A program made the position numbers and the translations under genes. Below are positions 47,918 through 60,706 of a stretch of DNA of 64,000 nucleotides, in pieces (the first letter of the stretch is position 1; each line of letters opens with the position of its first letter). The DNA is from Sphingobacteriales bacterium. GTDB lineage: Bacteria; Bacteroidota; Bacteroidia; Chitinophagales; Chitinophagaceae. The stretch spans positions 1-64,000 of the forward strand of contig JAHEBJ010000004.1 of NCBI GenBank assembly GCA_024642285.1. Reading direction: 5' to 3'. The notes beneath the pieces were generated by a model, which worked only from the letters and a program-made list of their open reading frames with translations, searched no databases and was not told the DNA's origin.

Positions 47918-50656
47918 ATGAGGATTTTTCTGTTTCTTTTTCTGTCGGCATGTTTTTTTACAAGCAATAATTTAAACGCCCAATCCTGTTTCAGCGTGGC
48001 TGCCGGCAACGATACTACTATATCCTGTTTACAAGCCTGTCTTAATTTGAAAGCAAGGATACCTGATGTAAGAACTTCAGAAACTTATTCGGTTACGTCA
48101 ATTCCTTATACACCTTATGCCTATGTTACTCCCTTTGGAACAACCGATCCACTTGTAGATGCCGACGATAATTTTTCAGATTCGTTCAATCTTCCCTTCC
48201 CTTTTTGTTTTTATGGCAATACTTATAACAAAATTTGCGTAGGTTCAAATGGCGTAATAACTTTTGATGTGTTTACCAATGCCAGAAGGCCAGAAAGTTA
48301 TGTGATCAATTCATCCAATACCATTCCCTATGCAGGAGGCGTTCCTAATAATATCGGCGTTTTCTATGCTCCTAAAGCAAGTATATTTTTAGCTTATTAT
48401 GATATGAATCCGCTTACCTCTCCTCCCGAGCACAAAATAGAATGGAGGGTTGAAGGTTCGGCACCTTGCCGCCGCTTTGTAGTTTCTTATTATCGGCTGG
48501 GAAATTTTGAAACCGGCCCCTGCCCTAATCCAACCAATCTGTGTACAATGCAAGCGGTTCTTTATGAAGGCACAGGAATAATTGATGTATTCTATCAAAA
48601 TAAACCAGCTTGTACTACATCGGCCAACGGCGGAGGTGTTTCAATTGCCGGCGTACAAAACTGGAAGCAAGATGCTGCTGTTACTCCTGTAGGAAAAAAC
48701 TGCACCGTTTGGACTGCTGTAAATGAAGGCTATCGTTATGTTCCAAGCGGCCCCACTTCTTTATTGAACAGGGTGGAACTTTGGAAAAACGGAGCCTTGG
48801 TTTCTACAGGCACAACTACTATTGTTGGTAATGGCGAACTCGAGGCTTTGTTCACCAATATCTGTCAAACAGAAGACAGCATGAGTTATATTGTACGAGC
48901 CTTTTATCAGCAGTGCGATAACCCTGCCATCGAGACCGAAGGCTCTGACACTATTATAGTCTATAAAACGCTCAACCCCGTTTCTGCAACTGTTACACCG
49001 GCGTTATGTGCTTCATCTGGTAACGGCCAAATAACTGTAACTGCTCCGCTGGGAGCAAATATTGAATATTCATCAGACGGCTTAAGCTGGCAGGCCGCCC
49101 CTGTTTTTAGTTTGCCGGGGGGAACTTATACCATCACTGCCCGACTTGTTGGTAGTTTATGTACCGGAGAAACCGTAGCAACAATTACTGCACCATTACC
49201 GTTTACCGTTAACGGTTTAAAAACCGACCTGCTTTGCAACAGTCAAAATACCGGCGAGGTAAGTTTTAATCCTACAGGGCCGGTGCCACCGTTTATGTTT
49301 TCGGCCGACGGCGGAACAACTTATCAAAGCAGCGGGACATTTACCGGACTTGCGGCAGGTTCGCATACTTTCAGAATAAGAAATGGAATTGGCTGCACCC
49401 AGGATACAACGATCATGATAACAGAACCGACATTGCTTACTGCCTCGGTACTTGTAATAGATGCCACTTGCCCGAACAACGATGGTGGAATAACATTGAT
49501 GACAAGTGGAGGCACTCCGGCTTATCAATTTTCGATAGATAACGGAATCAACTACCAACCATCCAATGCGTTTTCAAATTTACCGTCGGGAAATTATAAT
49601 AACATCCTTATAAAAGATGCCAACGGTTGCGTATCAAATACTATAGCGGTTATTGCGTTGAACGATGCCATGACGCTTGACCTCGGACCAGACAGCAGTT
49701 TATGTGCCGGCAGCAGTATCACTCTAATACCACAAACCAATGCCCAGACCGACACGTTTAAATGGACGCCTGCGACAACACTTAATTATGATACTGCAAG
49801 GAACCCTGTTGCCTCACCAACCGATACCACAAAATATTACCTGACGGCAAAATGGGGTGTTTGTAAACGAATAGATTCTGTAACAATAAATGTAAAGCAT
49901 AAACCGGTTGTTAACGCTGGTAACGACACAACAGTTTGTTACAAAACAAATGCAACGCTGTTCGGCAGTGCCACAAATTTATCGGGCGGTATAAATTATT
50001 CCTGGAGTCCGCCAGACTCATTGAATACCCCAACAAATGCATCAACCGGTGTAAGATTAGATACCAGCAGGAAATTCATTTTAACAGTTACAGATAATTA
50101 CGGTTGTAATTTTACCGTATCGGACAGTGTGTGGGTTTACATGCAACCAAAGCTGGAAGTATTTGCCGGCAATGATACCAACGCACTCTATGGACAGCCT
50201 CACCAAATGATGGCCAGCGGTGGTGTAAATTATTTATGGAGTCCAACCGGCCCACTAGATAATCCGTTCGTTGCAAACCCACTGGCAACGTTATTGAATG
50301 ATACTTATTTTCATGTTACAGTTACTGATGCCATTGGTTGTGTAGATGATGACGATGTATTTATAAAAGTGTACAAAGGGCCCAACTATTATTTACCAAA
50401 TACTTTTACGCCCAACGGCGATGGACTGAATGATGTATTCAGGCCAATACCTGTAGGCATGCGCAGCACAGAATACTTCAGGATATTCAACCGCTATGGA
50501 ACGGTAATGTTTGAAACCAGGCGATGGATGTATGGATGGGATGGCACCATCAAAGGCAAGCCGGCCGAGGGTGGCACTTACGTGTGGATGATAAAAGGGA
50601 CAGATGAAAACGGCCGTGTGGTTGAAATGAAGGGAACGGTAATACTGGTTCGTTAA
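47918..50656 (+). CDS. T9SS-secreted SprB-repeat protein (gliding-type C-terminus)
   Basis: 912 residues from the ATG at 47918 with a signal peptide (IFLFLFLSACFFTSNNLNAQ); the open frame starts upstream at 47873 but without a signal. The N-terminal 300 residues include a Cys-rich beta domain. Three tandem SprB-like repeats follow (NGQITVTAPLGANIEYSSDG; TGEVSFNPTGPVPPFMFSAD; DGGITLMTSGGTPAYQFSID), then two PKD/Ig-like domains. The last 90 residues are the type B sorting domain (FTPNGDGLNDVFRPIPVG; FNRYGTVMFE; GGTYVWMIKG). It should be exported by the type IX system and surface-attached or released. The stop overlaps the convergent ligase gene by 4 bp. Confidence 0.93.
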   Translation: MRIFLFLFLSACFFTSNNLNAQSCFSVAAGNDTTISCLQACLNLKARIPDVRTSETYSVTSIPYTPYAYVTPFGTTDPLVDADDNFSDSFNLPFPFCFYGNTYNKICVGSNGVITFDVFTNARRPESYVINSSNTIPYAGGVPNNIGVFYAPKASIFLAYYDMNPLTSPPEHKIEWRVEGSAPCRRFVVSYYRLGNFETGPCPNPTNLCTMQAVLYEGTGIIDVFYQNKPACTTSANGGGVSIAGVQNWKQDAAVTPVGKNCTVWTAVNEGYRYVPSGPTSLLNRVELWKNGALVSTGTTTIVGNGELEALFTNICQTEDSMSYIVRAFYQQCDNPAIETEGSDTIIVYKTLNPVSATVTPALCASSGNGQITVTAPLGANIEYSSDGLSWQAAPVFSLPGGTYTITARLVGSLCTGETVATITAPLPFTVNGLKTDLLCNSQNTGEVSFNPTGPVPPFMFSADGGTTYQSSGTFTGLAAGSHTFRIRNGIGCTQDTTIMITEPTLLTASVLVIDATCPNNDGGITLMTSGGTPAYQFSIDNGINYQPSNAFSNLPSGNYNNILIKDANGCVSNTIAVIALNDAMTLDLGPDSSLCAGSSITLIPQTNAQTDTFKWTPATTLNYDTARNPVASPTDTTKYYLTAKWGVCKRIDSVTINVKHKPVVNAGNDTTVCYKTNATLFGSATNLSGGINYSWSPPDSLNTPTNASTGVRLDTSRKFILTVTDNYGCNFTVSDSVWVYMQPKLEVFAGNDTNALYGQPHQMMASGGVNYLWSPTGPLDNPFVANPLATLLNDTYFHVTVTDAIGCVDDDDVFIKVYKGPNYYLPNTFTPNGDGLNDVFRPIPVGMRSTEYFRIFNRYGTVMFETRRWMYGWDGTIKGKPAEGGTYVWMIKGTDENGRVVEMKGTVILVR

Positions 50657-52236
50657 TTTTTTTGCTTGGCTGCAGTTTCGGCATTAAGAATATTTATTGT
50701 TTTTGTGTACAACTGAAAAGCCTCTTCCGATGAAGAACCTATACAAACAATTCCCATTTTTCCATATTGAGATAGTGCGCCGATCATATGAAACATAACT
50801 CCACGTTGTGCTGCCCCATCGAAATGCAATCCATGAAACATGGCAATATCTATCAGGTCCTGCGGCGTAATTCCTTTGTATGCGTCATTCTGCACATTAT
50901 CTGACGCAAAATAATATAGCTGCTGTTTATTAGGCGTTTCAAAAATACCTGTTGCTTCATTATAATGACCATCAGTTAAAAACTGTAACATCAAAAACGG
51001 ATGCGTTGTTCCGCCTTTTCGCAAATTGATCTCAATAGCATAATGAATCCAGGTATCATTTTCTTTTACTGATATAAAATCGATACTGAAACGCCCAAGT
51101 GCGCCTTGTTCTTTGAGTTCTTCGGCTATACATTTACTAAGGATAGCAATCTCAGTCCGGTAAGCAGGATTAGCAGGAAAATGAGCACCTTCAAACACCT
51201 GTCCGCTTTCGCCTCCCAAAACCTGGTCGTGGGTAGAGATTATATCTACTTCTCCTCTTGGGTTAATCCTGGCTTGTACCGAAGGAGAAACTTTTACGTC
51301 TCCTTCTACAAAGGCTTCCACAATACCTTCCATCAATTCAAACTTTTGAAGAAATGTTTCAATTGTCAGATCTTTTGCAACGGGGATAATACTTTTATCC
51401 AGGTTATTGTGAACCCAATCGAACAATTCTTTACTGCATAAATTTTCAGGGTATTTCAAAATAGCATTTCCATCACCCGAAAAACCATCATTTAATTTAA
51501 TAACTGCTTTTTTCAAATCGGGATACATATCTTTTAACCCGGCCACGGCGTGAACAATATCATCATAGGTTTTTAAATTTTCAGCTCCGGGCGGTATTCG
51601 TACTCCTGCCTTCATGAAAGCCCTGCGGCTGCCGCTTTTAGTACCCAGGTAAATTACCGAAGGATCGCACCCGTAAATAGGTATTTTTAATCGCACAGCT
51701 AAGCTGCGTTCAAGCGCTGTGGTATTGAAACAGGCGATATGAGCAACATGATCGGGCGGAATACTTCGCCTGATGCGTTCAATCAACCTCGGCCTCTGCA
51801 AAATTTTTTCGGTTAACGGAACGGGTGATGAATCATAGCAACTGATAAGCGTTAATCTTTCCCTTGCATGATAACCGGTAATGCCGGGCAGCAAGTGTAA
51901 ATAATAATCAATGATTACAGGATCGATGGGAACACTGCTTACATAAATAACATTTGCTCTTGGCATACGAAGTAACATAAGTAAGCACAAAAGCCGCTCT
52001 TCGTAGTGCATAGCACCCGTTACTTTGGCCAACACTTCCTGATCGAGTGAAAGGCTGGGTATAACAACAATTGTTTTAGGTGCGTGGTTGTCTGGAAAGA
52101 ACAATTCAAATTGCCTGGCAAAACCTTTTTGCAATTCGGCAAATGCCTGTAATTCCACTAAAGAACCGGGTTCAGGATTAAAACCGCCGTTATGGTCAAA
52201 GAGAGTTTGTTCAGGCTTGATGTCTAAATTATACAT
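50653..52236 (-). CDS. PGM1-related ATP-grasp peptide ligase
   Basis: 527-residue probable carboxylate-amine ligase. A pre-ATP-grasp region (about 1-180) is followed by an ATP-grasp core: GTKSGSRRAFMKAGVRIPPG, the ATP lysine and loop KKAVIKLNDGFSGDGNAIL, and the metal motif HYAIEINLRKGGTTHP (Glu-x-Asn). The C-terminal 90 residues (DIAMFHGLHFDGAAQRGVMF) match the PGM1 C-terminal domain. PGM1 of pheganomycin biosynthesis makes peptide bonds on a nonproteinogenic amino acid. The substrate here is unknown. The divergent partner is a glutamine-amidotransferase-like gene. A near-consensus -7 AATCTTTG (52239-52246) lies 2 nt before the start. Confidence 0.85.
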   Translation of the reverse strand: MYNLDIKPEQTLFDHNGGFNPEPGSLVELQAFAELQKGFARQFELFFPDNHAPKTIVVIPSLSLDQEVLAKVTGAMHYEERLLCLLMLLRMPRANVIYVSSVPIDPVIIDYYLHLLPGITGYHARERLTLISCYDSSPVPLTEKILQRPRLIERIRRSIPPDHVAHIACFNTTALERSLAVRLKIPIYGCDPSVIYLGTKSGSRRAFMKAGVRIPPGAENLKTYDDIVHAVAGLKDMYPDLKKAVIKLNDGFSGDGNAILKYPENLCSKELFDWVHNNLDKSIIPVAKDLTIETFLQKFELMEGIVEAFVEGDVKVSPSVQARINPRGEVDIISTHDQVLGGESGQVFEGAHFPANPAYRTEIAILSKCIAEELKEQGALGRFSIDFISVKENDTWIHYAIEINLRKGGTTHPFLMLQFLTDGHYNEATGIFETPNKQQLYYFASDNVQNDAYKGITPQDLIDIAMFHGLHFDGAAQRGVMFHMIGALSQYGKMGIVCIGSSSEEAFQLYTKTINILNAETAAKQKN

Positions 52237-52238
52237 AA

Positions 52239-52246
52239 CAAAGATT
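52239..52246 (-). promoter_or_regulatory. Near-consensus -7 at the ligase start
   Basis: CAAAGATT on the plus strand, i.e. AATCTTTG on the minus strand (7 of 8 matches to TAnnTTTG, counting both n positions as matches), 2 nt before the ATG at 52236. Weak alone; more interesting because the divergent gene shows the same arrangement. Confidence 0.35.
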
Positions 52247-52438
52247 TCTGATTGCCAATTTACAAGATGCTTAAAAAACTAAGACTGAGATTAGTCATAA
52301 AAACAGCAGGAATTTATCATCTTATTAAAACTAAAATAACTATATGCGGATAAATAACTCTGAGATTTTACAAGTTTTCTATCCACAATGCGTTGATAAA
52401 TTGAATGCAGTTCGAAAAGGGCTTCTTTTAAAAAATCT

Positions 52439-52446
52439 TATGTTTG
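52439..52446 (+). promoter_or_regulatory. -7 element directly at the amidotransferase start
   Basis: TATGTTTG, an exact TAnnTTTG, 3 nt before the ATG at 52450. An earlier TTG start (52444) overlaps the element and is unlikely. Predicts a leaderless mRNA. No -33 TTTG seen. Confidence 0.55.
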
Positions 52447-52449
52447 TAT

Positions 52450-53295
52450 ATGAGTTTTACCGAACAGAGATCGATCCGTGTTGCTATTTTAGATATGAAC
52501 GAAGGATTTGTGAATCAGGGTATGCGCTGTATCCGTGAAATACTCAACCAATTTGGCGAAGCCAATCACCTTAACCTTATATGGGACGAATTTGAAGTAA
52601 GACTTGAAAAGAAAACGCCAGATCTTAACTATGATATATATATATCAAGCGGTGGTCCGGGCAGTCCATTAGAAAGCGAAGGAAATGACTGGGAAAAAGT
52701 TTACTTTGATTGGTTACATAAAATCGAACAATTTAACAACAACTCATCACAAAGCAGAAAAAAGAAAGTCTTTTTTATTTGCCATTCTTTTCAATTAATC
52801 TGCCGCCATTACGCCATTGCCAATGTTGCTCCACGCAAAAGCACTTCGTTCGGCATCTTTCCTATGCATTTGCTGAGAGAAGGAAAAGATGAATTGATAT
52901 TTGAAGGTTTAAATGACCCGTTCTATGCTGTTGACAGTCGTGATTTTCAGGTGATAGAACCCAACCACGGCAAACTGCATGAAATGGGTGCCTGTATTTT
53001 AGCTATAGAAAAAGACCGGCCACATGTGCCATTGGAAAGGGCAATTATGGCCATTCGTTTTAACGAGCATATGATAGGTACACAGTTCCACCCAGAGGCA
53101 GATGCCATTGGTATGAGCCTTCACCTGCAGACTGCCGATAAGAAAAAAACAGTGATCGATAACTATGGTCAGGAAAAATGGAAGTCGATGATCGATCATC
53201 TGAACGACCCCGAAAAAATTCTCTGGACCTACGCACATATCCTTCCTAATTTTTTACTCCATGCGGTTGAATGCCTGCAGCCCGCCGAAGTTTAA
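52450..53295 (+). CDS. Class I glutamine-amidotransferase-like protein
   Basis: 281 residues from the ATG at 52450. GATase1 fold with SSGGPGSPLES, the nucleophile Cys in KVFFICHSFQLICRHY (about residue 114), and the His-x-Glu in GTQFHPEADAIGMS. The Cys-His-Glu triad is intact, but the nucleophile loop CHSFQ differs from the usual CxGHQ. No synthetase domain is attached. Glutaminase domains usually feed ammonia to a partner; the ATP-grasp ligases on either side are the obvious candidates (inference). It is 75 bp before the second ATP-grasp-like gene. Confidence 0.87.
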   Translation: MSFTEQRSIRVAILDMNEGFVNQGMRCIREILNQFGEANHLNLIWDEFEVRLEKKTPDLNYDIYISSGGPGSPLESEGNDWEKVYFDWLHKIEQFNNNSSQSRKKKVFFICHSFQLICRHYAIANVAPRKSTSFGIFPMHLLREGKDELIFEGLNDPFYAVDSRDFQVIEPNHGKLHEMGACILAIEKDRPHVPLERAIMAIRFNEHMIGTQFHPEADAIGMSLHLQTADKKKTVIDNYGQEKWKSMIDHLNDPEKILWTYAHILPNFLLHAVECLQPAEV

Positions 53296-53369
53296 ACCCA
53301 CTTTTATTTAATGGATTTTTATAGTTATTTTTATTCTTAACAAAAGAATAATCAAATCGCTATAAAAAA

Positions 53370-54569
53370 ATGATAAAAGAGTTAAGACAACAATTCAACG
53401 CCGGTTTTACAAAAGAAAAATATGATGCTTACATGGAAAAAGTGGAGGGGCTGCATGCGGGTTCTCTGGATTTCAGAAATGCTGAAACACCCATTTATAT
53501 TCCCAAAGAATTTACAGACAAAATGCTGAGTGCATGCGATGATATTGTTGATGTGATTGTGGATCCAAAGTTTATGGAGATAACCGAAAGGGGAATTCCG
53601 GCGAACGTAAGAGTTCCAAATGAAAGCGATCATACCGAGTTTTTAGTTTTTGATTTTGGAATTTGCGAAAACGAAAGCGGCGGTCTAGAGCCGCAGTTGA
53701 TAGAAATGCAGGGCTTTCCAACACTATATGGCTTTCAGGCTTTCCATTCTGAACTAACCGCCGAATACGCAAATCTCCCTTCAAATTTTTCGCCTTACCT
53801 CAGCGGGTACAATAAGGAAACTTATATTCAGTTGCTTAAAGATATTATTGTTGGCGACCTTGATCCTGAAAATGTAATACTGCTTGAAATATTCCCGGAG
53901 AAACAAAAGACGAGGATTGATTTTTATTGTACCGAACAACTGCTTGGCATCAAAATGGTTTGTCTTACCAAACTAATTGCAGAAGGCGATAAATTGTATT
54001 ACGATAATAACGGAGTTAAGATCTTGATCAAAAGAATTTATAACCGTGTAATTTTTGATGATCTTCAAAAACAGGAAGGCCTGGGCGATATTATTGACCT
54101 CACCAAAAACTATGATGTGGAATGGACGCCGCATCCTAACTGGTTTTACCGCATCAGTAAATTCACTTTACCATTTATAGAAAACCCTTATGTTCCTCAA
54201 ACTTATTTTTTGAATGAGTTAAAACAAATGCCCGCCGATCTGGAAAATTATGTTCTAAAACCACTGTTTTCCTTTGCCGGCATGGGCGTGGTCATTGATG
54301 TTTCCAGGGAAGATATTGATGCTGTCAAAGATCCTGAGAACTGGATATTACAGAAAAAAGTAAAATACGCAGATGTTATTGAAACGCTTGATGTGCCTGC
54401 CAAAGCAGAGATACGTTTGTTTTACTTTTGGAAGAAAGGATGGAGCAGGCCGGTTGCTGTACACAACCTTGCAAGGCTGAGCAAAGGAAAGATGATAGGT
54501 ACTAGATATAATATGAATAAAGAATGGGTTGGTGGCGGAGTGGCGTTTTTTGAAAACTCAGCCCCCTAG
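53370..54569 (+). CDS. Probable ATP-grasp enzyme (GSP-synthetase-like layout)
   Basis: 399 residues, not firmly recognised. The layout resembles glutathionylspermidine-synthetase-type ATP-grasp proteins: an Asp/Glu-Asn-like segment PQLIEMQGFPTLYGFQAFHS, a segment ENVILLEIFPEKQKTRIDFY, then LIKRIYNRVIF, the ATP lysine/Gly loop YVLKPLFSFAGMGVVIDV (about residue 292), and acidic motif WILQKKVKYADVIE with AEIRLFYFW. The C-terminus ends in VGGGVAFFENSAP. It lies between the glutamine-amidotransferase-like gene and a CHAD-like gene. I infer ATP-dependent amide-bond formation; no substrate is visible. Confidence 0.65.
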   Translation: MIKELRQQFNAGFTKEKYDAYMEKVEGLHAGSLDFRNAETPIYIPKEFTDKMLSACDDIVDVIVDPKFMEITERGIPANVRVPNESDHTEFLVFDFGICENESGGLEPQLIEMQGFPTLYGFQAFHSELTAEYANLPSNFSPYLSGYNKETYIQLLKDIIVGDLDPENVILLEIFPEKQKTRIDFYCTEQLLGIKMVCLTKLIAEGDKLYYDNNGVKILIKRIYNRVIFDDLQKQEGLGDIIDLTKNYDVEWTPHPNWFYRISKFTLPFIENPYVPQTYFLNELKQMPADLENYVLKPLFSFAGMGVVIDVSREDIDAVKDPENWILQKKVKYADVIETLDVPAKAEIRLFYFWKKGWSRPVAVHNLARLSKGKMIGTRYNMNKEWVGGGVAFFENSAP

Positions 54570-54631
54570 TCCCTCCAAAAAAAAGGGATAAATTCCGGTG
54601 GAATAAACTCTGCGAATTAAACATATGATTA

Positions 54632-55630
54632 ATGAAAAAAGGATTAGCAAGATTTGACTACTTTATAAATCAGTTACAGGAGCTGTTGGATAAAGCCTCA
54701 CGGCAAAAAAATCCGGCACTGTGGCTTTACCGCAATAATGCCCGAACAACATTGTTTATGTTGGAAGCTTTGGCAAAAATGTATGCAGCTTTTCATAATA
54801 AAAAAAAGTTTTCAAAGTTTAAGGATCACTTTAAACTTTTGGAAGATGCAATAGGTAAGATTGATTATTACGACGCTTTTGCTAAGGAAATTGCCGGCGA
54901 CAAAAAAATCCCGAAAACTATTACCAGCTACCTGCAGGCGCAAACAAGAGAAAAAATACAAAGTCTTAATGAAATTTTAAAAGAGAAAAAATGGCTGAGC
55001 GATGGCAATATCCGGATGAAAAAGATAAAAGAACGTCTGGCCAAGGCAGACTGGCGTAATGAAAAAGACGATATAAAGAGTATCAAGTCTTATTATCTAA
55101 CTGAAATCAATCAAATACTTGAATTCATCAATCAAAAAGATTTTCATTTTACGAATGTGGAAAATGATGTGCATGAGTTCAGACGAAGGATACGCTGGCT
55201 GAGTATTTACCCGCAGGCGTTGAGAGGCTGCGTACAGTTAAGCAATTCAAAAACTACCATACCGAAATTTCTTTCTAAATATCTTACTAAAGAAATAACC
55301 GGATCACCCTACAACGTGATGCCCCAAGCCGGAATACACAAACATTTTTTGCTTTTAGAAAAGAACAGATTCTTTGCATTGAGCTGGATGATTAACGAAC
55401 TGGGGAATCTTAAAGACGGCGGACTGAAAGTAGAAGTACTCAAAGAAGCTGTTATGCAAACTTCTCCTGCCGACGAAAATGCTGCGACAGCTAAGGCATA
55501 TGAGTATGCCGGACCAAAACAAATTACAATACAACAGGTTTTGGACGCAGCTGAAAACCTGTTCAAAACTTATTGCAAGGAAAAAAACCTTGAATCATTG
55601 ATTATCGGCATCGCAGTCGTAAAAAAATAA
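54632..55630 (+). CDS. CHAD-like helical protein
   Basis: 332 residues, nearly all helical and basic. Two segments resemble the CHAD repeat: one at about residues 32-90 (NNARTTLFMLEALAKMYAAF, FKLLEDAIGKIDYYDAF) and one at about 180-200 (VHEFRRRIRWLSIYPQALRG). CHAD domains are helical bundles with conserved His/Arg that bind polyphosphate. The spacing and pseudo-twofold repeat fit, but the match is by eye. No catalytic residues are visible. It follows the ATP-grasp-like gene by 62 bp and precedes an outer-membrane protein by 16 bp, so it may be part of the same operon. Confidence 0.6.
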   Translation: MKKGLARFDYFINQLQELLDKASRQKNPALWLYRNNARTTLFMLEALAKMYAAFHNKKKFSKFKDHFKLLEDAIGKIDYYDAFAKEIAGDKKIPKTITSYLQAQTREKIQSLNEILKEKKWLSDGNIRMKKIKERLAKADWRNEKDDIKSIKSYYLTEINQILEFINQKDFHFTNVENDVHEFRRRIRWLSIYPQALRGCVQLSNSKTTIPKFLSKYLTKEITGSPYNVMPQAGIHKHFLLLEKNRFFALSWMINELGNLKDGGLKVEVLKEAVMQTSPADENAATAKAYEYAGPKQITIQQVLDAAENLFKTYCKEKNLESLIIGIAVVKK

Positions 55631-55646
55631 TCAACATTATTTTATT

Positions 55647-56432
55647 ATGACAAACAATTTCCTGCCTTTTTTAATTGCCTTTGTAACAAGTACCTCGTTA
55701 TGTAATGCACAAACCGAAAAAATTGATACCGACCGGCCCGATCAAACAGAAAGCGCCGTAACTGTTCCTAAAAAATGGATCCAATTTGAAATGGGGTTTT
55801 TAAAACAGTCAGACAATTACCGATCTAATGAGCATGAAATAATTTTTCAACATCCTACATTACTAACAAAATATGGGGTAACCAAATGGGCAGAGCTTCG
55901 CCTGATAACAACCTATGGTACGGAAAGGGTGAAATCAGGCAATGTAATCAGTTATCGGTTAAACGGTATTCAGTCGGTACAACTTGGAGGTAAATTCAAT
56001 TTTTTTAAAGAAAAAGGACTCAGACCGAAAACATCGATAATAGCACATTATGATTTTGCAAGATTAAGAACACCTTATCGGGATACAATTGATGGTGTTA
56101 ATTTCAGGTTTACTATGCAACATACACTCACAAAAAAAATATCCGTTGGCTATAATCTTGGAATGGAGTGGCCCAGATTTGGCTCACCGCCTGCATATAT
56201 TTATACTTTTGCACCCGGTTTGAATATCAGCGAAAACTGGTACTGTTATCTGGAGATTTTTGGCTCTTTCTATAAAAACAGAAACGCCCAGCACAGTATA
56301 GATGGAGGACTGGCATATTTTGTAAGCGATAATTTAAAGCTGGATTTATCCTCCGGCTTCGGCATTTCCCGAAATGCGCCTGATTGGTATTTAGCTGTTG
56401 GAGGTTCATTCCGGTTTAAAACGGGAAAATAG
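55647..56432 (+). CDS. Outer-membrane transporter-like protein (phenol MetA-degradation type)
   Basis: 261 residues with a signal peptide (FLPFLIAFVTSTSLCNAQ). The mature protein begins TDRPDQTESAVTVPKKWIQFEMGF, a hallmark of the PF13557-like outer-membrane family, and continues with repeated amphipathic strands ending in a Phe/Lys terminal strand. Predicted beta-barrel; substrate unknown. The stop abuts that of the convergent TlpA gene with no spacer. Confidence 0.83.
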   Translation: MTNNFLPFLIAFVTSTSLCNAQTEKIDTDRPDQTESAVTVPKKWIQFEMGFLKQSDNYRSNEHEIIFQHPTLLTKYGVTKWAELRLITTYGTERVKSGNVISYRLNGIQSVQLGGKFNFFKEKGLRPKTSIIAHYDFARLRTPYRDTIDGVNFRFTMQHTLTKKISVGYNLGMEWPRFGSPPAYIYTFAPGLNISENWYCYLEIFGSFYKNRNAQHSIDGGLAYFVSDNLKLDLSSGFGISRNAPDWYLAVGGSFRFKTGK

Positions 56433-56912
56433 TTATTGAACCAATTTTTTAACCAGGTCGAATAACTCCTTGCCCTCAATATTTATCGCAAGAATTTTGC
56501 CTTCCTTGTCCAGTAAAAAATTGGTAGGTAACGCATCCACAAAATATCTTTCTGCTACTTTCGATTTCCAACCCGCCGCATCTATTACTTGTGTGTAGGT
56601 AAGTTTATCTTTTTTAATTGCTTTAAGCCAGGCATCTTTTTTAACATCAAGCGAAACTGCAAATACTTCAAAGCCATTATCCTTGTATTTTTTGTACAAT
56701 TTCTGTACATAAGGATTTGCTGCCCGGCAAGGCGCACACCAGCTGGCCCAAAAATCAATCAGCACCACTTTGCCGGCAAGGGATGAAAGCTTTATCGAAT
56801 CGTCCTGGTTTCCCGGCAGTGTAATTTCCGGAACCATGCCTCCTATTCTCAATTGTGCATTTCCCGCCAGGGAGCCAATTAAAATAATAAAAACAAAAAA
56901 TATTTTTTTCAT
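56433..56912 (-). CDS. TlpA-like thioredoxin
   Basis: 159 residues from the ATG at 56912 with a signal peptide (IFFVFIILIGSLAGNAQ). AhpC-TSA/TlpA fold with the redox motif WASWCAPCRAANP (about residue 59). It acts in the periplasm on disulfides. It is 66 bp downstream of the TonB receptor on the same strand, so it likely belongs to the same operon; keeping the Cys-rich metal proteins reduced is a plausible job (inference). Confidence 0.9.
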   Translation of the reverse strand: MKKIFFVFIILIGSLAGNAQLRIGGMVPEITLPGNQDDSIKLSSLAGKVVLIDFWASWCAPCRAANPYVQKLYKKYKDNGFEVFAVSLDVKKDAWLKAIKKDKLTYTQVIDAAGWKSKVAERYFVDALPTNFLLDKEGKILAINIEGKELFDLVKKLVQ

Positions 56913-56978
56913 CTGCAATGATTCTTTTTTTGAAACAAGGATAACAGGAATAATAAAAAACGATTCATATCTCTTCAG

Positions 56979-59591
56979 TTATTTAATTTTCAATCTTAAT
57001 CCGCCATAAAACATTCTGCCGCTCAAAGGTCCCCAAACCATAGATGCGTCAAAGTATTGGCTAAATGGCTGGTCTGCGGCCACAATCGCATTGGTCTGAA
57101 AATAATTGGTCAGGTTCTCTGCCCCAATATAGATATCCATTTCAAATTTCTTTCCCACCGTTTTGGATATTTGCGAATTCATCAAAATATAATTCGGCGA
57201 GTAGGAATCAAGTTGATACACCGGAATATTATCGCCGGTGTAGGGCAATCTCTTCTTACCGTTATAGTTAATTGTATAGTCAAACTTAAACCGGCGAATG
57301 CTATAAGAAAGATTCATAAATGCACGATTCTTTGATATTAATGAACGGTCGAGCAATTTACCGCTGTAAGTAGTCTTTACATCAAAATACCTGTATGCTA
57401 ATCGCACTTCAAATTTCTTAATTGGCTCTACATTCAACTCAAGCTGCAAGCTGTTTGAATAAGATTTACCCAGCAGATTATAAAAGTCAGCTTTTCTTGC
57501 ATGTTCCAGATCAACAACCACCTGGTTTTTGAAATCATTCCTGAAAAAATCAACAACAAACAAAGCATCGTTATTAAACAACCTGAATTTCTGATCTATG
57601 CTGATTCCTTTATTCCACGCTACTTCAGGATCCAGTCCATATGCTTTGCCGCTGCTGGCAGCAAGAATATTTACCTGCCTGGCGCTTACCAGTACACCTG
57701 TATTTTCGGCAAATACATTTGCGGTTCGCTGCCCTCTTCCGGCGCTGGCCCTGATAATGGTACCCTTTACCGGCTCATAGCGAAAATTCAAACGAGGCGT
57801 TACAAAAAACCCAAACAAATTACTTTGATCAAAACGCAATCCCGCTACAACAGTAAATTTATCATTAGGTATATAAGTGTACTCTCCAAAAACACCCGGC
57901 ACTGTTTCATTTCTTTTATAATTAACCGACTTAAAATTCTCGTTATACCGATCATATAAAAAACTGATGCCGGTGCGGAACTTGTGTATTGTTGTGCTTA
58001 TAATAGATTGGTAAATAAGGTTTGTATAAATGGTTTGTTGCTTGCCATTATAAGTTGTCAATCCAAAATAAGAATTCTGGTTATGACTGATACCGGCTAC
58101 CTGTAAGCCAATACTTTTGTACTTTTTTTCGGGAAACAAATAGCCCATTTTGGCAAATGCTTCATAACGTTCTGTATTAATACTGAGGCCATACCTATTG
58201 GTTGTATTTTTGTCTTTGTCAGGATCAAAAGCAAGTTCACCGCCTGTTCTGTTCTCCAGCAAAACTTTAAAACCCAACTGTGATTCTACACCTTTACCGC
58301 TTGAATACTTATACCGGTTTACAAGGCTAAATGTATTACCGACTGGCTGATCTCTGAAACCATCTTTGTTGAAATCGAGTTCTTTGTTGGTAAAAAAATC
58401 ATCGTGTATCAATAGACCGGTCGACCAATTATTGTTTATTTTTTTTGCCAGATTCAAGTTCAGATCAGTTTTCCCAAAACCATTTACATAAACATTGGCC
58501 AGCAGTCTTTCACTGCTTTCCGGTTTCACCAATTCAACATTTATCTGGCCCGCAATACTTTCGTAACCATTAGCAACTGAGCCAACACCTTTTGTCAACT
58601 GAATTGATTCAATCCATGGTCCGGCAATAGAATTTAAACCCAATGGCGTGGCAAGGCCGCGTGGACCGGGAAGATTCTCCACCGTTAGCTGCGTATAATT
58701 TCCGCTTAAGCCTAATAATTGAATTTGTTTTGACCCGGTTACAGCGTCATTAAAAGTTACATCAACCGAAGGATTGGTTTCAAAACTTTCGCTGAGGTTA
58801 CAACAGGCAGCTTTCAGTAACTCTCCACCTGTCATGGTTTGCGTACGCACAGCACTAAAATTATCGGTGTACACCGTTCGTCTCCTCGCCGAAACAACCA
58901 CTTCCTTCAATTGACTCTTTGATGCCAATACGATCTTAAGATCATTTAAAGATGCAATACTGATCGTATCTGAACTATAGCCTGAATAACTTACGATCAG
59001 ACGATTTCCCATTCCATCCTGCCTGATATTAAAAACACCATTGCTGTCAGTCAGCACACCTTCGTCCTTACCCAACCAAAAAATACTGGCATTCCTAAGC
59101 GGAGTAAGTAATCCTTTACTGTTTTCCTCCAGCACTATCCCCTTAATAAAATTTTTCATTGCAGGAGAAACCTGGTTAGCAGATTTCGACATAAAAGAAT
59201 CAACTGAAGCGTTCGCAACATTATTATTATGATTCTCCTTTGCCCCCAGCTCTCTGTAAAGGCAGCATTTGGGTAAAGCCTGATATACTACAGCATCAGC
59301 TTCTTTATCGTCAAGATCATGCCCTACAGCAACCACCTTACTCTTTAATTTCTTCAGCGATACTTTTGATGGATTGTAAACTATGTTCAACAACTGCGTA
59401 TTTTCATCCCAGTCGGCTGATCTTACACCCTTCCCTTTAACCGCAGTTTCAATTCTTTCCTTGCACTGAATACAAACACCATAAACTGTAAAGCTTGTAC
59501 TGATCTCTCCCTTTTCATTTGTATCCTGCGAATACAATGCAGAACTAAAAAAGACGAGACACAACATATATATATATCTTACCTGTTTCAT
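56979..59591 (-). CDS. TonB-dependent receptor with N-terminal HMA domain
   Basis: 870 residues from the ATG at 59591. Signal peptide (IYMLCLVFFSSALYSQ), then an HMA-like domain (about 30-98) with metal motif CIQC, followed by an extra motif YQALPKCCLYRE. Next a CarboxypepD-regulatory-like domain (about 145-220), the plug (LKAACCNLSESFETNPS; GPRGLATPLGLNSI; GVGSVANGYESIAGQINVEL) and a 22-strand-type barrel ending MFYGGLRLKIK. Imports a substrate through the outer membrane with TonB; the HMA domain implies a soft metal, likely copper (inference). An inverted repeat overlaps its promoter. Confidence 0.93.
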   Translation of the reverse strand: MKQVRYIYMLCLVFFSSALYSQDTNEKGEISTSFTVYGVCIQCKERIETAVKGKGVRSADWDENTQLLNIVYNPSKVSLKKLKSKVVAVGHDLDDKEADAVVYQALPKCCLYRELGAKENHNNNVANASVDSFMSKSANQVSPAMKNFIKGIVLEENSKGLLTPLRNASIFWLGKDEGVLTDSNGVFNIRQDGMGNRLIVSYSGYSSDTISIASLNDLKIVLASKSQLKEVVVSARRRTVYTDNFSAVRTQTMTGGELLKAACCNLSESFETNPSVDVTFNDAVTGSKQIQLLGLSGNYTQLTVENLPGPRGLATPLGLNSIAGPWIESIQLTKGVGSVANGYESIAGQINVELVKPESSERLLANVYVNGFGKTDLNLNLAKKINNNWSTGLLIHDDFFTNKELDFNKDGFRDQPVGNTFSLVNRYKYSSGKGVESQLGFKVLLENRTGGELAFDPDKDKNTTNRYGLSINTERYEAFAKMGYLFPEKKYKSIGLQVAGISHNQNSYFGLTTYNGKQQTIYTNLIYQSIISTTIHKFRTGISFLYDRYNENFKSVNYKRNETVPGVFGEYTYIPNDKFTVVAGLRFDQSNLFGFFVTPRLNFRYEPVKGTIIRASAGRGQRTANVFAENTGVLVSARQVNILAASSGKAYGLDPEVAWNKGISIDQKFRLFNNDALFVVDFFRNDFKNQVVVDLEHARKADFYNLLGKSYSNSLQLELNVEPIKKFEVRLAYRYFDVKTTYSGKLLDRSLISKNRAFMNLSYSIRRFKFDYTINYNGKKRLPYTGDNIPVYQLDSYSPNYILMNSQISKTVGKKFEMDIYIGAENLTNYFQTNAIVAADQPFSQYFDASMVWGPLSGRMFYGGLRLKIK

Positions 59592-59672
59592 AATTTTCAA
59601 TTTTCATTCAGCTACTTTAAAAGCGCTGCTGTTCTTCCAGCATAGTTTTACCGTAGTAAAATCTTCTACAAT

Positions 59673-59716
59673 CAAATGTATACGGTGGCCCGTTAGTGAC
59701 CCTTTGCCACCATATA
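59673..59716 (-). promoter_or_regulatory. Promoter of the TonB receptor with overlapping inverted repeat
   Basis: CAAATGTA (59673-59680) is TACATTTG on the minus strand, an exact -7. Around it, TATA-C-GGTGGC (59679-59689) and GCCACC-A-TATA (59706-59716) form an inverted repeat with one mismatch and a 16-nt centre covering the expected -33 zone. The arrangement suits repressor binding. A weak terminator of the upstream HMA gene is the alternative. Confidence 0.42.
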
Positions 59717-59742
59717 AATTTGATTTTTAACCAACAATTTAA

Positions 59743-60216
59743 TTAGTGCTGTCCCGCCTGTTCGCCTTTCTTTTCCTTTAAAGCCATACCACATGTTGGG
59801 CATTTTCCAGCCTTATTGTATGTTTTATCTTTCTCACAATTCATAGGGCAAGCAAAAGCTTTAGTAGTGGCATCGCTGTCTGCTTTTCTGTCGTACTTGC
59901 AGCAGCCGGGCAAATTATCGTAAGCTGTTTTTACTGCGGTAAAATCCTGTGTATCGTAACCGGAGTTTGCGATGGCTTCCTGAATTTTAGCGGAAGAAGT
60001 TTTATTTACAGCATAAGTAACTTTTAGTTCTTTACTTTCTTCGTTCCAACTGGCAGTTTTTGCACCGGCTGATTTGGCTGCTTTTTCAATGGTGGTTTTA
60101 CACATACCGCAATTGCCCGATACTTTAATGGTTTCGGTTGTTTTGCTTTGTGCTGATGAAGTACTGATTGAGAATATGCTGAACATGATTGCAGCAAATA
60201 ATGATAATGTTTTCAT
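59743..60216 (-). CDS. HMA-domain protein with C-terminal metal-binding motif
   Basis: 157 residues with a signal peptide (FAAIMFSIFSISTSSAQ). HMA-like domain (about 28-95) with VSGNCGMCKTTIEKAAKSAG (CxxC), then the motif YDNLPGCCKYDRK, then a heavy-metal-binding domain FACPMNCEKDKTYNKAGKCP followed by TCGMALKE. The LPxCCxY motif is shared with the TonB receptor downstream. Probably a periplasmic metal carrier; a copper role is inferred. Confidence 0.9.
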   Translation of the reverse strand: MKTLSLFAAIMFSIFSISTSSAQSKTTETIKVSGNCGMCKTTIEKAAKSAGAKTASWNEESKELKVTYAVNKTSSAKIQEAIANSGYDTQDFTAVKTAYDNLPGCCKYDRKADSDATTKAFACPMNCEKDKTYNKAGKCPTCGMALKEKKGEQAGQH

Positions 60217-60319
60217 TTTATTAAAATTTTTATGTTGAATAATAATTATTGATCAGACTGGACGCCAGACCAACCGCACCGATAAATATCTTTACCGATG
60301 AAAAAATTCAAAGTCAATT

Positions 60320-60706
60320 CTAAATTCTGAAAACGCAGTTCAATATATTGGCCGATGGGCCCGTATAATCAGGTGGGGAATGATTATTTGTGGAAATTAA
60401 AGCGGAGTTTTCCGGTGTTTGCCAGTTATAAACAAAATGATTATTTACCAGAGCCAATTCGCTGGCTGCTAAATTAATATCATTGGTAACAATTTTATGA
60501 GAGTCGCTGATTTTGTAAAACTTGAAATCATCGTGACAGCAGCCGCTATCTTTTTCACTCATGCCGCATTTGCCGCATGTGTCGCTTGACGATCCATAAA
60601 AATCTACTCCGGCCTTGTCGCCCATGCAATAATGCAGTTCTAAAGCTACTCCCGAAGAAACAGCCAAATACAAAACCGCTAATATGCCTATATAGATTTT
60701 TTTCAT
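60320..60706 (-). CDS. HYC/CC-type small Cys-rich protein
   Basis: 128 residues with a hydrophobic N-terminus (YIGILAVLYLAVSSGVALEL), then HYCMGDKAG, DTCGKCGMSEKDSGCCHDD (several Cys), then a Pro-rich C-terminus. This fits the HYC_CC_PP family seen beside HMA-TonB genes in Bacteroidota. Probably membrane-anchored and metal-binding. It is the first gene of the metal cluster and has a good promoter (TTG-N19-TAAATTTG). Confidence 0.82.
   Translation of the reverse strand: MKKIYIGILAVLYLAVSSGVALELHYCMGDKAGVDFYGSSSDTCGKCGMSEKDSGCCHDDFKFYKISDSHKIVTNDINLAASELALVNNHFVYNWQTPENSALISTNNHSPPDYTGPSANILNCVFRI

What the first reader, a model, noticed from the sequence alone, without database searches (positions are those of the whole stretch)
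50653..55630. Cluster of two ATP-grasp ligases, a lone glutamine-amidotransferase-like protein and a CHAD-like protein
Seen: a PGM1-related ligase (50653-52236) divergent from a stand-alone class I glutaminase-like gene with an unusual CHSFQ nucleophile loop, followed by a probable GSP-synthetase-like ATP-grasp protein and a helical CHAD-like protein. Known: PGM1-type ligases make peptide bonds and GATase domains give ammonia. Inference: a small pathway that builds an amide- or peptide-linked metabolite, perhaps linked to polyphosphate or an exported product (an outer-membrane protein follows at 55647). No carrier proteins or NRPS modules are present, so this would be a ribosome- and NRPS-independent route.
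Basis: partly seen in the sequence, partly recalled or inferred. Interest (0 to 1): 0.72.

Follow-up and report, generated by a model that had tools for sequence, protein, structure and literature searches.

The report
Split Bacteroidota amide-ligase pathway genes
Two neighbouring genes, a glutamine-amidotransferase-like enzyme and an unnamed ligase with the fold of glutathione synthetase, belong to an amide-bond-making gene set of unknown product that recurs across the bacterial phylum Bacteroidota, while the other two genes beside them are only local neighbours.

Summary
The four genes are real and at the stated places. 50653-52236 is a PGM1/BesA-type ATP-grasp ligase. 52450-53295 is a class I glutamine amidotransferase with a Cys-His-Glu triad and a conserved, unusual C-H-S-[F/Y]-Q loop. 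53370-54569 ("P3") matches no Pfam or NCBIfam family, but all 32 PDB fold matches (E <= 1e-3) of its model (pLDDT 91) are glutathione synthetase, glutathionylspermidine synthase, YgiC/YjfC or Cp1B structures. 54632-55630 has the CHAD fold. They are not one conserved cluster. P3 occurs in 92 of 296 sampled genomes of the phylum; 89 of these have a D-Ala-D-Ala-ligase-like ATP-grasp enzyme and 87 a YbdK-type GCS2 ligase. The recurring order is esterase(s), ATP-grasp, GCS2, GATase, P3. In the window's genome the set is split: esterase, ATP-grasp and GCS2 lie on another contig. In the loci read, CHAD follows P3 only in Ferruginibacter-like genomes, and the PGM1-type gene adjoins it only in some of those. 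Best reading: an NRPS-independent route with three amide ligases to a gamma-glutamyl-type conjugate, perhaps amine-capped, with a dedicated hydrolase. All chemistry is inferred and the product is unknown. P3 is a new family in a known superfamily.

The parts
52450..53295 (+). Stand-alone class I glutamine-amidotransferase-like protein (281 aa), part of the gene set that recurs across the phylum
   Evidence: PF00117 38.1 bits; C111, H214, E216 invariant in 23 aligned sequences; near P3 in 22 of 40 loci and 65 of 80 named loci
53370..54569 (+). P3: unnamed ATP-grasp ligase with the glutathione synthetase / GspS / YgiC fold (399 aa)
   Evidence: AF2 pLDDT 91.0, pTM 0.90; 32 of 32 PDB matches with E <= 1e-3 are of this fold group; hhalign to E. 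coli YgiC E 2.9e-5 over 80 columns; in 109 of 147 family genomes and 92 of 296 phylum genomes
54632..55630 (+). CHAD-fold protein (332 aa); neighbour of P3 in Ferruginibacter-like genomes only, among the loci read
   Evidence: AF2 pLDDT 90.7; best Foldseek PDB matches are the Chlorobium tepidum CHAD domain, free and with polyphosphate (6qv7 5.1e-4, 6qva 9.0e-4); by P3 in 12 of 80 named loci
50653..52236 (-). PGM1/BesA-type ATP-grasp ligase (527 aa), divergent local neighbour, probably not part of the conserved set
   Evidence: PF24923, PGM1_C, BesA/8yi6; in 24 of 147 family genomes; GATase or P3 beside it in 0 of 18 loci fetched outside the genus

Best explanation
52450-53295 and 53370-54569 are two genes of an amide-ligase pathway that recurs across Bacteroidota; its other genes (esterase, D-Ala-D-Ala-ligase-like ATP-grasp, YbdK-type GCS2) sit on another contig of this genome. 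Proposed mechanism: GCS2 activates a glutamate carboxylate and joins it to an amine; the smaller ATP-grasp enzyme makes a second amide bond; P3 activates the free carboxylate of that product as acyl phosphate and caps it with an amino acid or a (poly)amine. The GATase uses its Cys-His-Glu triad to hydrolyse a gamma-glutamyl or terminal amide bond (recycling or proofreading) or, less likely, delivers ammonia. Shown: folds, conserved residues, shared occurrence, operon structure. Inferred: every reaction and the product. My estimates: P3 is a pathway partner of GCS2 and the ATP-grasp enzyme 0.9; P3 is an active amide ligase 0.85; its acceptor is a polyamine 0.3; the GATase is a hydrolase rather than an ammonia donor 0.55 (lowered from 0.6 on recheck, because an Amidohydro_3 gene also occurs beside an intact GATase in L043 and 18 of 30 GATase-less loci show no hydrolase upstream of P3).
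For: Among 296 genomes the ATP-grasp enzyme is in 89 of 92 P3 genomes and 19 of 204 others; GCS2 in 87 of 92 and 16 of 204. ATP-grasp and GCS2 stand in line upstream of P3 in 12 of the 20 phylum-wide loci. Three Ferruginibacter loci keep esterase-ATP-grasp-GCS2-GATase-P3-CHAD in order (L084, L085, L087). The window's genome has esterase, ATP-grasp (82% to the nearest relative) and GCS2 together on contig C70. P3 fold. The GCS2 profile matches YbdK 1r8g at 1.5e-64; the ATP-grasp profile's best PDB match is D-Ala-D-Ala ligase, only 0.0047. 15 genomes have GATase but no P3; in 7 of the 11 of these that I fetched, another ligase-like protein stands beside the GATase (one family, 58-61% alike; the two members scanned match circularly permuted ATP-grasp PF14403 at 32.5 and 31.6 bits, cut-off 32). 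YgiC, a fold match of P3, is annotated as peptide-spermidine ligase and YgiC/YjfC are called peptidylpolyamine synthetases in PMC12568646 (passages).
Against: Genomes are related, so the association is weaker than the raw p-values (down to 3e-52) suggest. Five P3 genomes show no GCS2 and three no ATP-grasp hit; 19 ATP-grasp and 16 GCS2 genomes have no P3. In many lineages, including the window's, the genes are scattered, so one pathway is inferred. 37 of 92 P3 genomes have no GATase, so it is dispensable. The superfamily motif R-x-D...E-x-N (recalled) is only partly kept: D95 and E112 are invariant, N is replaced by invariant Q114, and no sequence of the 26 has the R (matched by eye, since hhalign did not align that part). 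P3 TM-scores to the solved folds are moderate, 0.47-0.63. No substrate or product is known.
Confidence: 0.65

Rival explanations
1. One reading: the PGM1-type ligase, GATase, P3 and CHAD protein form one small pathway, with CHAD linking it to polyphosphate.
For: Adjacent here and in three relatives (L032, L077, L079). In the family the PGM1-type gene occurs only in P3-bearing genomes: 24 of 24, against 85 of 123 others (p 6e-4, not corrected for kinship; in G043, G122 and G142 the P3 match is a fragment).
Against: 0 of 18 other PGM1-type loci fetched have GATase or P3 within six ORFs. A same-genus genome, G034, has GATase, P3 and CHAD together but no PGM1-type match. CHAD is not found by P3 in 68 of 80 named loci (some flanks are short).
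Confidence: 0.1
2. The GATase is an ammonia donor: it hydrolyses glutamine and one of the ligases makes a primary amide with the ammonia.
For: PF00117 match and complete triad; close linkage with P3; in 18 of 30 GATase-less P3 loci read no alternative hydrolase stands just upstream of P3.
Against: 37 of 92 P3 genomes lack it. Strong M29 hits (E below 1e-100) occur in 6 of 37 GATase-less and 0 of 43 GATase-bearing P3 genomes tested, 5 of them between GCS2 and P3; 11 of the 43 do have weaker M29 hits elsewhere in the genome. An Amidohydro_3 enzyme stands just upstream of P3 in 7 GATase-less loci. The loop departs from the usual C-x-G-x-Q (recalled).
Confidence: 0.25
3. The ligases modify a protein (RimK-like tagging) rather than make a small molecule.
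For: ATP-grasp ligases are known from protein tagging (recalled); some ATP-grasp members carry long Lys/Ala-rich tails.
Against: Fold neighbours of P3 act on small molecules (PMC12568646 passages). Esterase-type genes lie in the operon. I did not search for a conserved small substrate gene.
Confidence: 0.12
4. P3 is a catalytically dead or regulatory ATP-grasp relative.
For: N-to-Q and missing R in the presumed metal/phosphate motif (by eye).
Against: 41 columns are invariant in 26 sequences, among them D95, E112, K297, E347, R349 and R369.
Confidence: 0.07

Closest known systems
YgiC / YjfC peptide-spermidine ligases and glutathionylspermidine synthetase (GspS), E. coli
   Same: Same fold (7uk8 8.5e-13, 7uk6 2.6e-11, 2io7 7.7e-10); an alignable stretch ending in the K-P strand
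   Different: P3 gives no Pfam GSP_synth match in the window's genome, differs in the presumed metal/phosphate motif, and lies with GCS2/ATP-grasp/GATase genes, whereas ygiC lies beside ygiB and tolC
Eukaryotic glutathione / homoglutathione synthetase
   Same: Same fold (1m0w 1.2e-13, 3kal 9.6e-13, 2hgs 1.2e-11); as in glutathione synthesis, linked with a glutamate-ligase family (GCS2)
   Different: 10-14% identity; a further ATP-grasp enzyme and a GATase in the set; no evidence for cysteine
Cp1B, ATP-grasp ligase of the fungal E-64 pathway
   Same: Same fold (9cjn 5.8e-11); NRPS-independent amide formation (PMC12568646, passages)
   Different: Fungal, acts on epoxysuccinate with an amino acid; different partner genes
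BesA / PGM1 ligases (for 50653-52236)
   Same: PGM1_C and ATP-grasp_IQCH above cut-off, 8yi6 9.8e-34
   Different: 132 bits against the BesA cut-off of 750; Bes or pheganomycin pathway genes were not looked for
CHAD polyphosphate-binding proteins (for 54632-55630)
   Same: Fold of 6qv7/6qva (5.1e-4, 9.0e-4); length like the long CHAD type (PMC6537752, passages)
   Different: No Pfam CHAD match in the window protein; 2 of 12 family members match (best 7e-4)

Membership tests
Glutathione synthetase / GspS / YgiC superfamily (P3) | Overall fold | tested here: met
   32 of 32 PDB matches with E <= 1e-3 are of this group, TM-score 0.47-0.63
Glutathione synthetase / GspS / YgiC superfamily (P3) | Lysine of the K-P strand | tested here: met
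   K297 invariant in 26, aligned with YgiC YVVKPIFS
Glutathione synthetase / GspS / YgiC superfamily (P3) | R-x-D ... E-x-N metal/phosphate motif (recalled) | tested here: inconclusive
   D95 and E112 invariant, N replaced by Q114, R absent; YgiC and GspS share R100, D102, E115, N117 in YgiC numbering; matched by eye only
Pfam PF03738 GSP_synth (P3) | Score above curated cut-off | tested here: not met
   No hit in the window protein or in its genome; 10 of 26 family members hit weakly, best 3.3e-4
Class I glutamine amidotransferase (52450) | Domain score and Cys-His-Glu triad | tested here: met
   PF00117 38.1 bits, cut-off 22.8; C111, H214, E216 invariant in 23
Class I glutamine amidotransferase (52450) | C-x-G-x-Q nucleophile loop (recalled) | tested here: not met
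   C-[H/Y]-S-[F/Y]-Q; S113 invariant
Class I glutamine amidotransferase (52450) | Glutaminase activity | not testable with these tools
   needs an enzyme assay
BesA equivalog (50653) | Score above NF042917 cut-off | tested here: not met
   132.2 against 750 bits
PGM1/BesA-type ATP-grasp (50653) | PGM1_C and ATP-grasp domains | tested here: met
   35.8 against 22.5 and 74.6 against 27 bits
CHAD (54632) | Helical CHAD fold | tested here: met
   6qv7 5.1e-4, 6qva 9.0e-4, then 3e0s (same C. tepidum protein), 6rn5 PptA (CHAD membership recalled) and 6qv5 at 2.1e-3 to 4.7e-2
CHAD (54632) | Pfam PF05235 match | tested here: not met
   Window protein no CHAD hit; 2 of 12 family members, best 7e-4
CHAD (54632) | Polyphosphate binding | not testable with these tools
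   needs a binding assay
Glutathione-type pathway | GCS2 glutamate ligase in the same genome | tested here: met
   PF04107 201 bits on contig C70
Glutathione-type pathway | Cysteine-containing thiol product | not testable with these tools
   needs thiol profiling

The most novel reading that the evidence does not exclude
Bacteroidota carry an unrecognised, widely kept cofactor-like metabolite, a gamma-glutamyl pseudo-peptide capped with a polyamine (a bacterial counterpart of glutathionylspermidine or trypanothione), built by GCS2, a D-Ala-D-Ala-like ATP-grasp enzyme and P3, and taken apart by a dedicated amidase that different lineages have replaced with unrelated hydrolases (GATase, M29, Amidohydro_3).
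Probability: 0.18. Interest if true: 0.8.

Novelty: new variant of a known kind. Interest (0 to 1): 0.5.

Why it matters
P3 was found in 92 of 296 sampled genomes of the phylum, usually in one copy, and its two ligase partners are strongly conserved (mean column identity 55% for the ATP-grasp family and 68% for GCS2). That suggests a core metabolite rather than a niche one. P3 has no family model in the Pfam and NCBIfam copies searched. Naming the product would add a small molecule to a major environmental phylum, and the set of three ligases makes it directly testable.

Tried and rejected
Sequence search with P3 alone failed: no Pfam family, one chance NCBIfam hit, only chance PDB hits; a family profile gave YgiC at 0.037. 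hhalign of P3 against the PF14403-type protein of P3-less genomes was weak (probability 4%), so I do not call them one family. The PGM1-type gene was tested as a pathway partner and set aside; its restriction to P3-bearing genomes stays unexplained. The hydrolase-replacement idea is only partly supported: of the 37 GATase-less P3 genomes I read the P3 locus of 30; M29 stands before P3 in 5, Amidohydro_3 in 7, neither in 18, and Amidohydro_3 also stands directly upstream of an intact GATase in L043. Only L071, L072 and L043 were Pfam-scanned for Amidohydro_3; the rest rest on BLAST similarity. An SSF symporter joined to or just before P3 (L062, L199, L202) was not resolved.

Literature: nine searches, of which I saw the listed titles and starts of abstracts only (where lists were capped, the top rows), showed no description of the GCS2/ATP-grasp/GATase/P3 set; the library is partial. 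A 2009 survey of amidoligases by Iyer, Aravind and colleagues (recalled) is not held and may mention this neighbourhood. PMC12568646 and PMC6537752 were seen as passages; the YgiC/YjfC paper (Pederick 2023) only as a reference quoted in the first.
Full report
What is there. Searches confirm the four ORFs. The divergent gene 50653-52236 encodes a PGM1/BesA-type ATP-grasp ligase (PF24923, PGM1_C; PDB 8yi6 at 9.8e-34). 52450-53295 encodes a stand-alone class I glutamine amidotransferase domain. 53370-54569 (P3) has no Pfam match and only a chance NCBIfam one. 54632-55630 has no Pfam match at E up to 1. 55647-56432 is a PF13557 protein. The nearest named relatives of P3 come from Ferruginibacter, so I take the window to be from a Ferruginibacter-like bacterium and the 'phylum' of the genome searches to be Bacteroidota.

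P3. AlphaFold2 on 37 sequences gave pLDDT 91.0 and pTM 0.90. Foldseek against the PDB gave 32 matches with E at or below 1e-3. All 32 are glutathione synthetases or related nematode effectors, homoglutathione synthetase, a putative glutathionylspermidine synthase (3n6x, 8.3e-15), GspS, YgiC, YjfC or the E-64 ligase Cp1B; TM-scores by query length are 0.47-0.63 and identities 10-15%. Sequence support: 10 of 26 family members match Pfam GSP_synth weakly (best 3.3e-4), and hhalign of the family to YgiC gives E 2.9e-5 over 80 columns including the K-P strand. The presumed metal and phosphate motif is altered (D95 and E112 kept, Q114 for N, no R); this comparison is by eye.

GATase. C111, H214 and E216 are invariant in 23 aligned sequences, and the odd loop is a family trait, C-[H/Y]-S-[F/Y]-Q.

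CHAD. The model (pLDDT 90.7) has as its two best PDB matches the CHAD domain of Chlorobium tepidum, free and with polyphosphate (5.1e-4 and 9.0e-4); the next four, with weaker E-values up to 0.047, are further structures of that protein, PptA and a plant CHAD domain. CHAD domains bind polyphosphate (PMC6537752, passages); whether this one does was not tested.

Neighbourhood. P3 is in 109 of 147 sampled genomes of the family and 92 of 296 of the phylum. The typical order is esterase, ATP-grasp, GCS2, GATase, P3; ATP-grasp and GCS2 stand in line upstream of P3 in 12 of the 20 phylum-wide loci. In the 80 kept of 591 named relatives, GATase is near P3 in 65, GCS2 in 18, ATP-grasp in 16, esterase in 12, CHAD in 12, the outer-membrane protein in 2 and the PGM1-type gene in 2; many contigs are short, so these are lower bounds, and the 80 are the most similar ones. 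CHAD lies after P3 in 12 of the 14 most similar loci (L075-L088); the contigs of the two without it end within 0.9 kb of P3. Three of these keep the whole run with CHAD at its end (L084, L085, L087). In the window's genome the esterase, ATP-grasp and GCS2 genes stand together on contig C70. The window thus holds one part of a split set.

Co-occurrence over the same 296 genomes: ATP-grasp in 89 of 92 P3 genomes and 19 of 204 others; GCS2 in 87 of 92 and 16 of 204; GATase in 55 of 92 and 15 of 204; all four in 50. Fisher p-values run from about 1e-21 to 3e-52 but treat genomes as independent.

The hydrolase slot. Of 37 P3 genomes without GATase, 6 have a strong M29 peptidase match, against 0 of 43 GATase-bearing ones tested (p 0.008); in 5 of the 6 it lies between GCS2 and P3. 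Eleven of the 43 have weaker M29 matches elsewhere. I read the P3 locus of 30 of the 37: M29 stands before P3 in 5, an Amidohydro_3-type enzyme in 7, neither in 18. Amidohydro_3 also stands beside an intact GATase in L043. This suggests, but does not prove, that the slot is for amide or peptide hydrolysis. Conversely 15 genomes have GATase without P3; I fetched 11, and in 7 the protein beside GATase belongs to one family (58-61% alike), two members of which match circularly permuted ATP-grasp PF14403 at about its cut-off, as if the last ligase had been exchanged. In the other 4 my ORF listing did not show it.

The PGM1-type gene. 24 of 147 family genomes have it. In 18 of the 22 loci outside the genus that I fetched, its neighbours vary and none within six ORFs is GATase or P3. 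It is therefore probably a local neighbour. That all 24 carriers also have a P3 match is unexplained.

Mechanism. From what is known of these families, GCS2 and ATP-grasp enzymes activate carboxylates as acyl phosphates and join them to amines (recalled; for ATP-grasp also stated in PMC12568646). YgiC and YjfC are described as peptidylpolyamine synthetases there. The most economical reading is a three-ligase route to a gamma-glutamyl-type conjugate with an amine cap, plus a hydrolase. Only genes, folds and associations are shown here; every chemical step is inferred.

Noticed in passing
L062:6637-9237: One long open frame joins a sodium:solute symporter (PF00474) to P3; in L199 and L202 an ORF that clusters with this frame stands directly before P3 (not Pfam-scanned).
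   Followed up: partly
L155, L156, L159, L161, L162, L163, L164: In genomes with GATase but no P3, a 451-483 aa protein family related to circularly permuted ATP-grasp PF14403 stands beside the GATase; in six of the seven the ATP-grasp gene is directly next to it.
   Followed up: partly
L071, L072, L208, L209, L210, L215, L218: An Amidohydro_3-type enzyme lies directly upstream of P3 in genomes that lack the GATase; in L043 one lies upstream of an intact GATase.
   Followed up: partly
window 56433-60706: TlpA-like thioredoxin, a TonB-type receptor with a heavy-metal-like N-terminal domain and small cysteine-rich metal-binding-type proteins lie just downstream; labels come from reading the sequence, not from a search.
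   Followed up: no
window 50653-52236: In the family the PGM1-type gene was found only in genomes with a P3 match (24 of 24) although the two are not neighbours in the 18 loci read outside the genus.
   Followed up: partly
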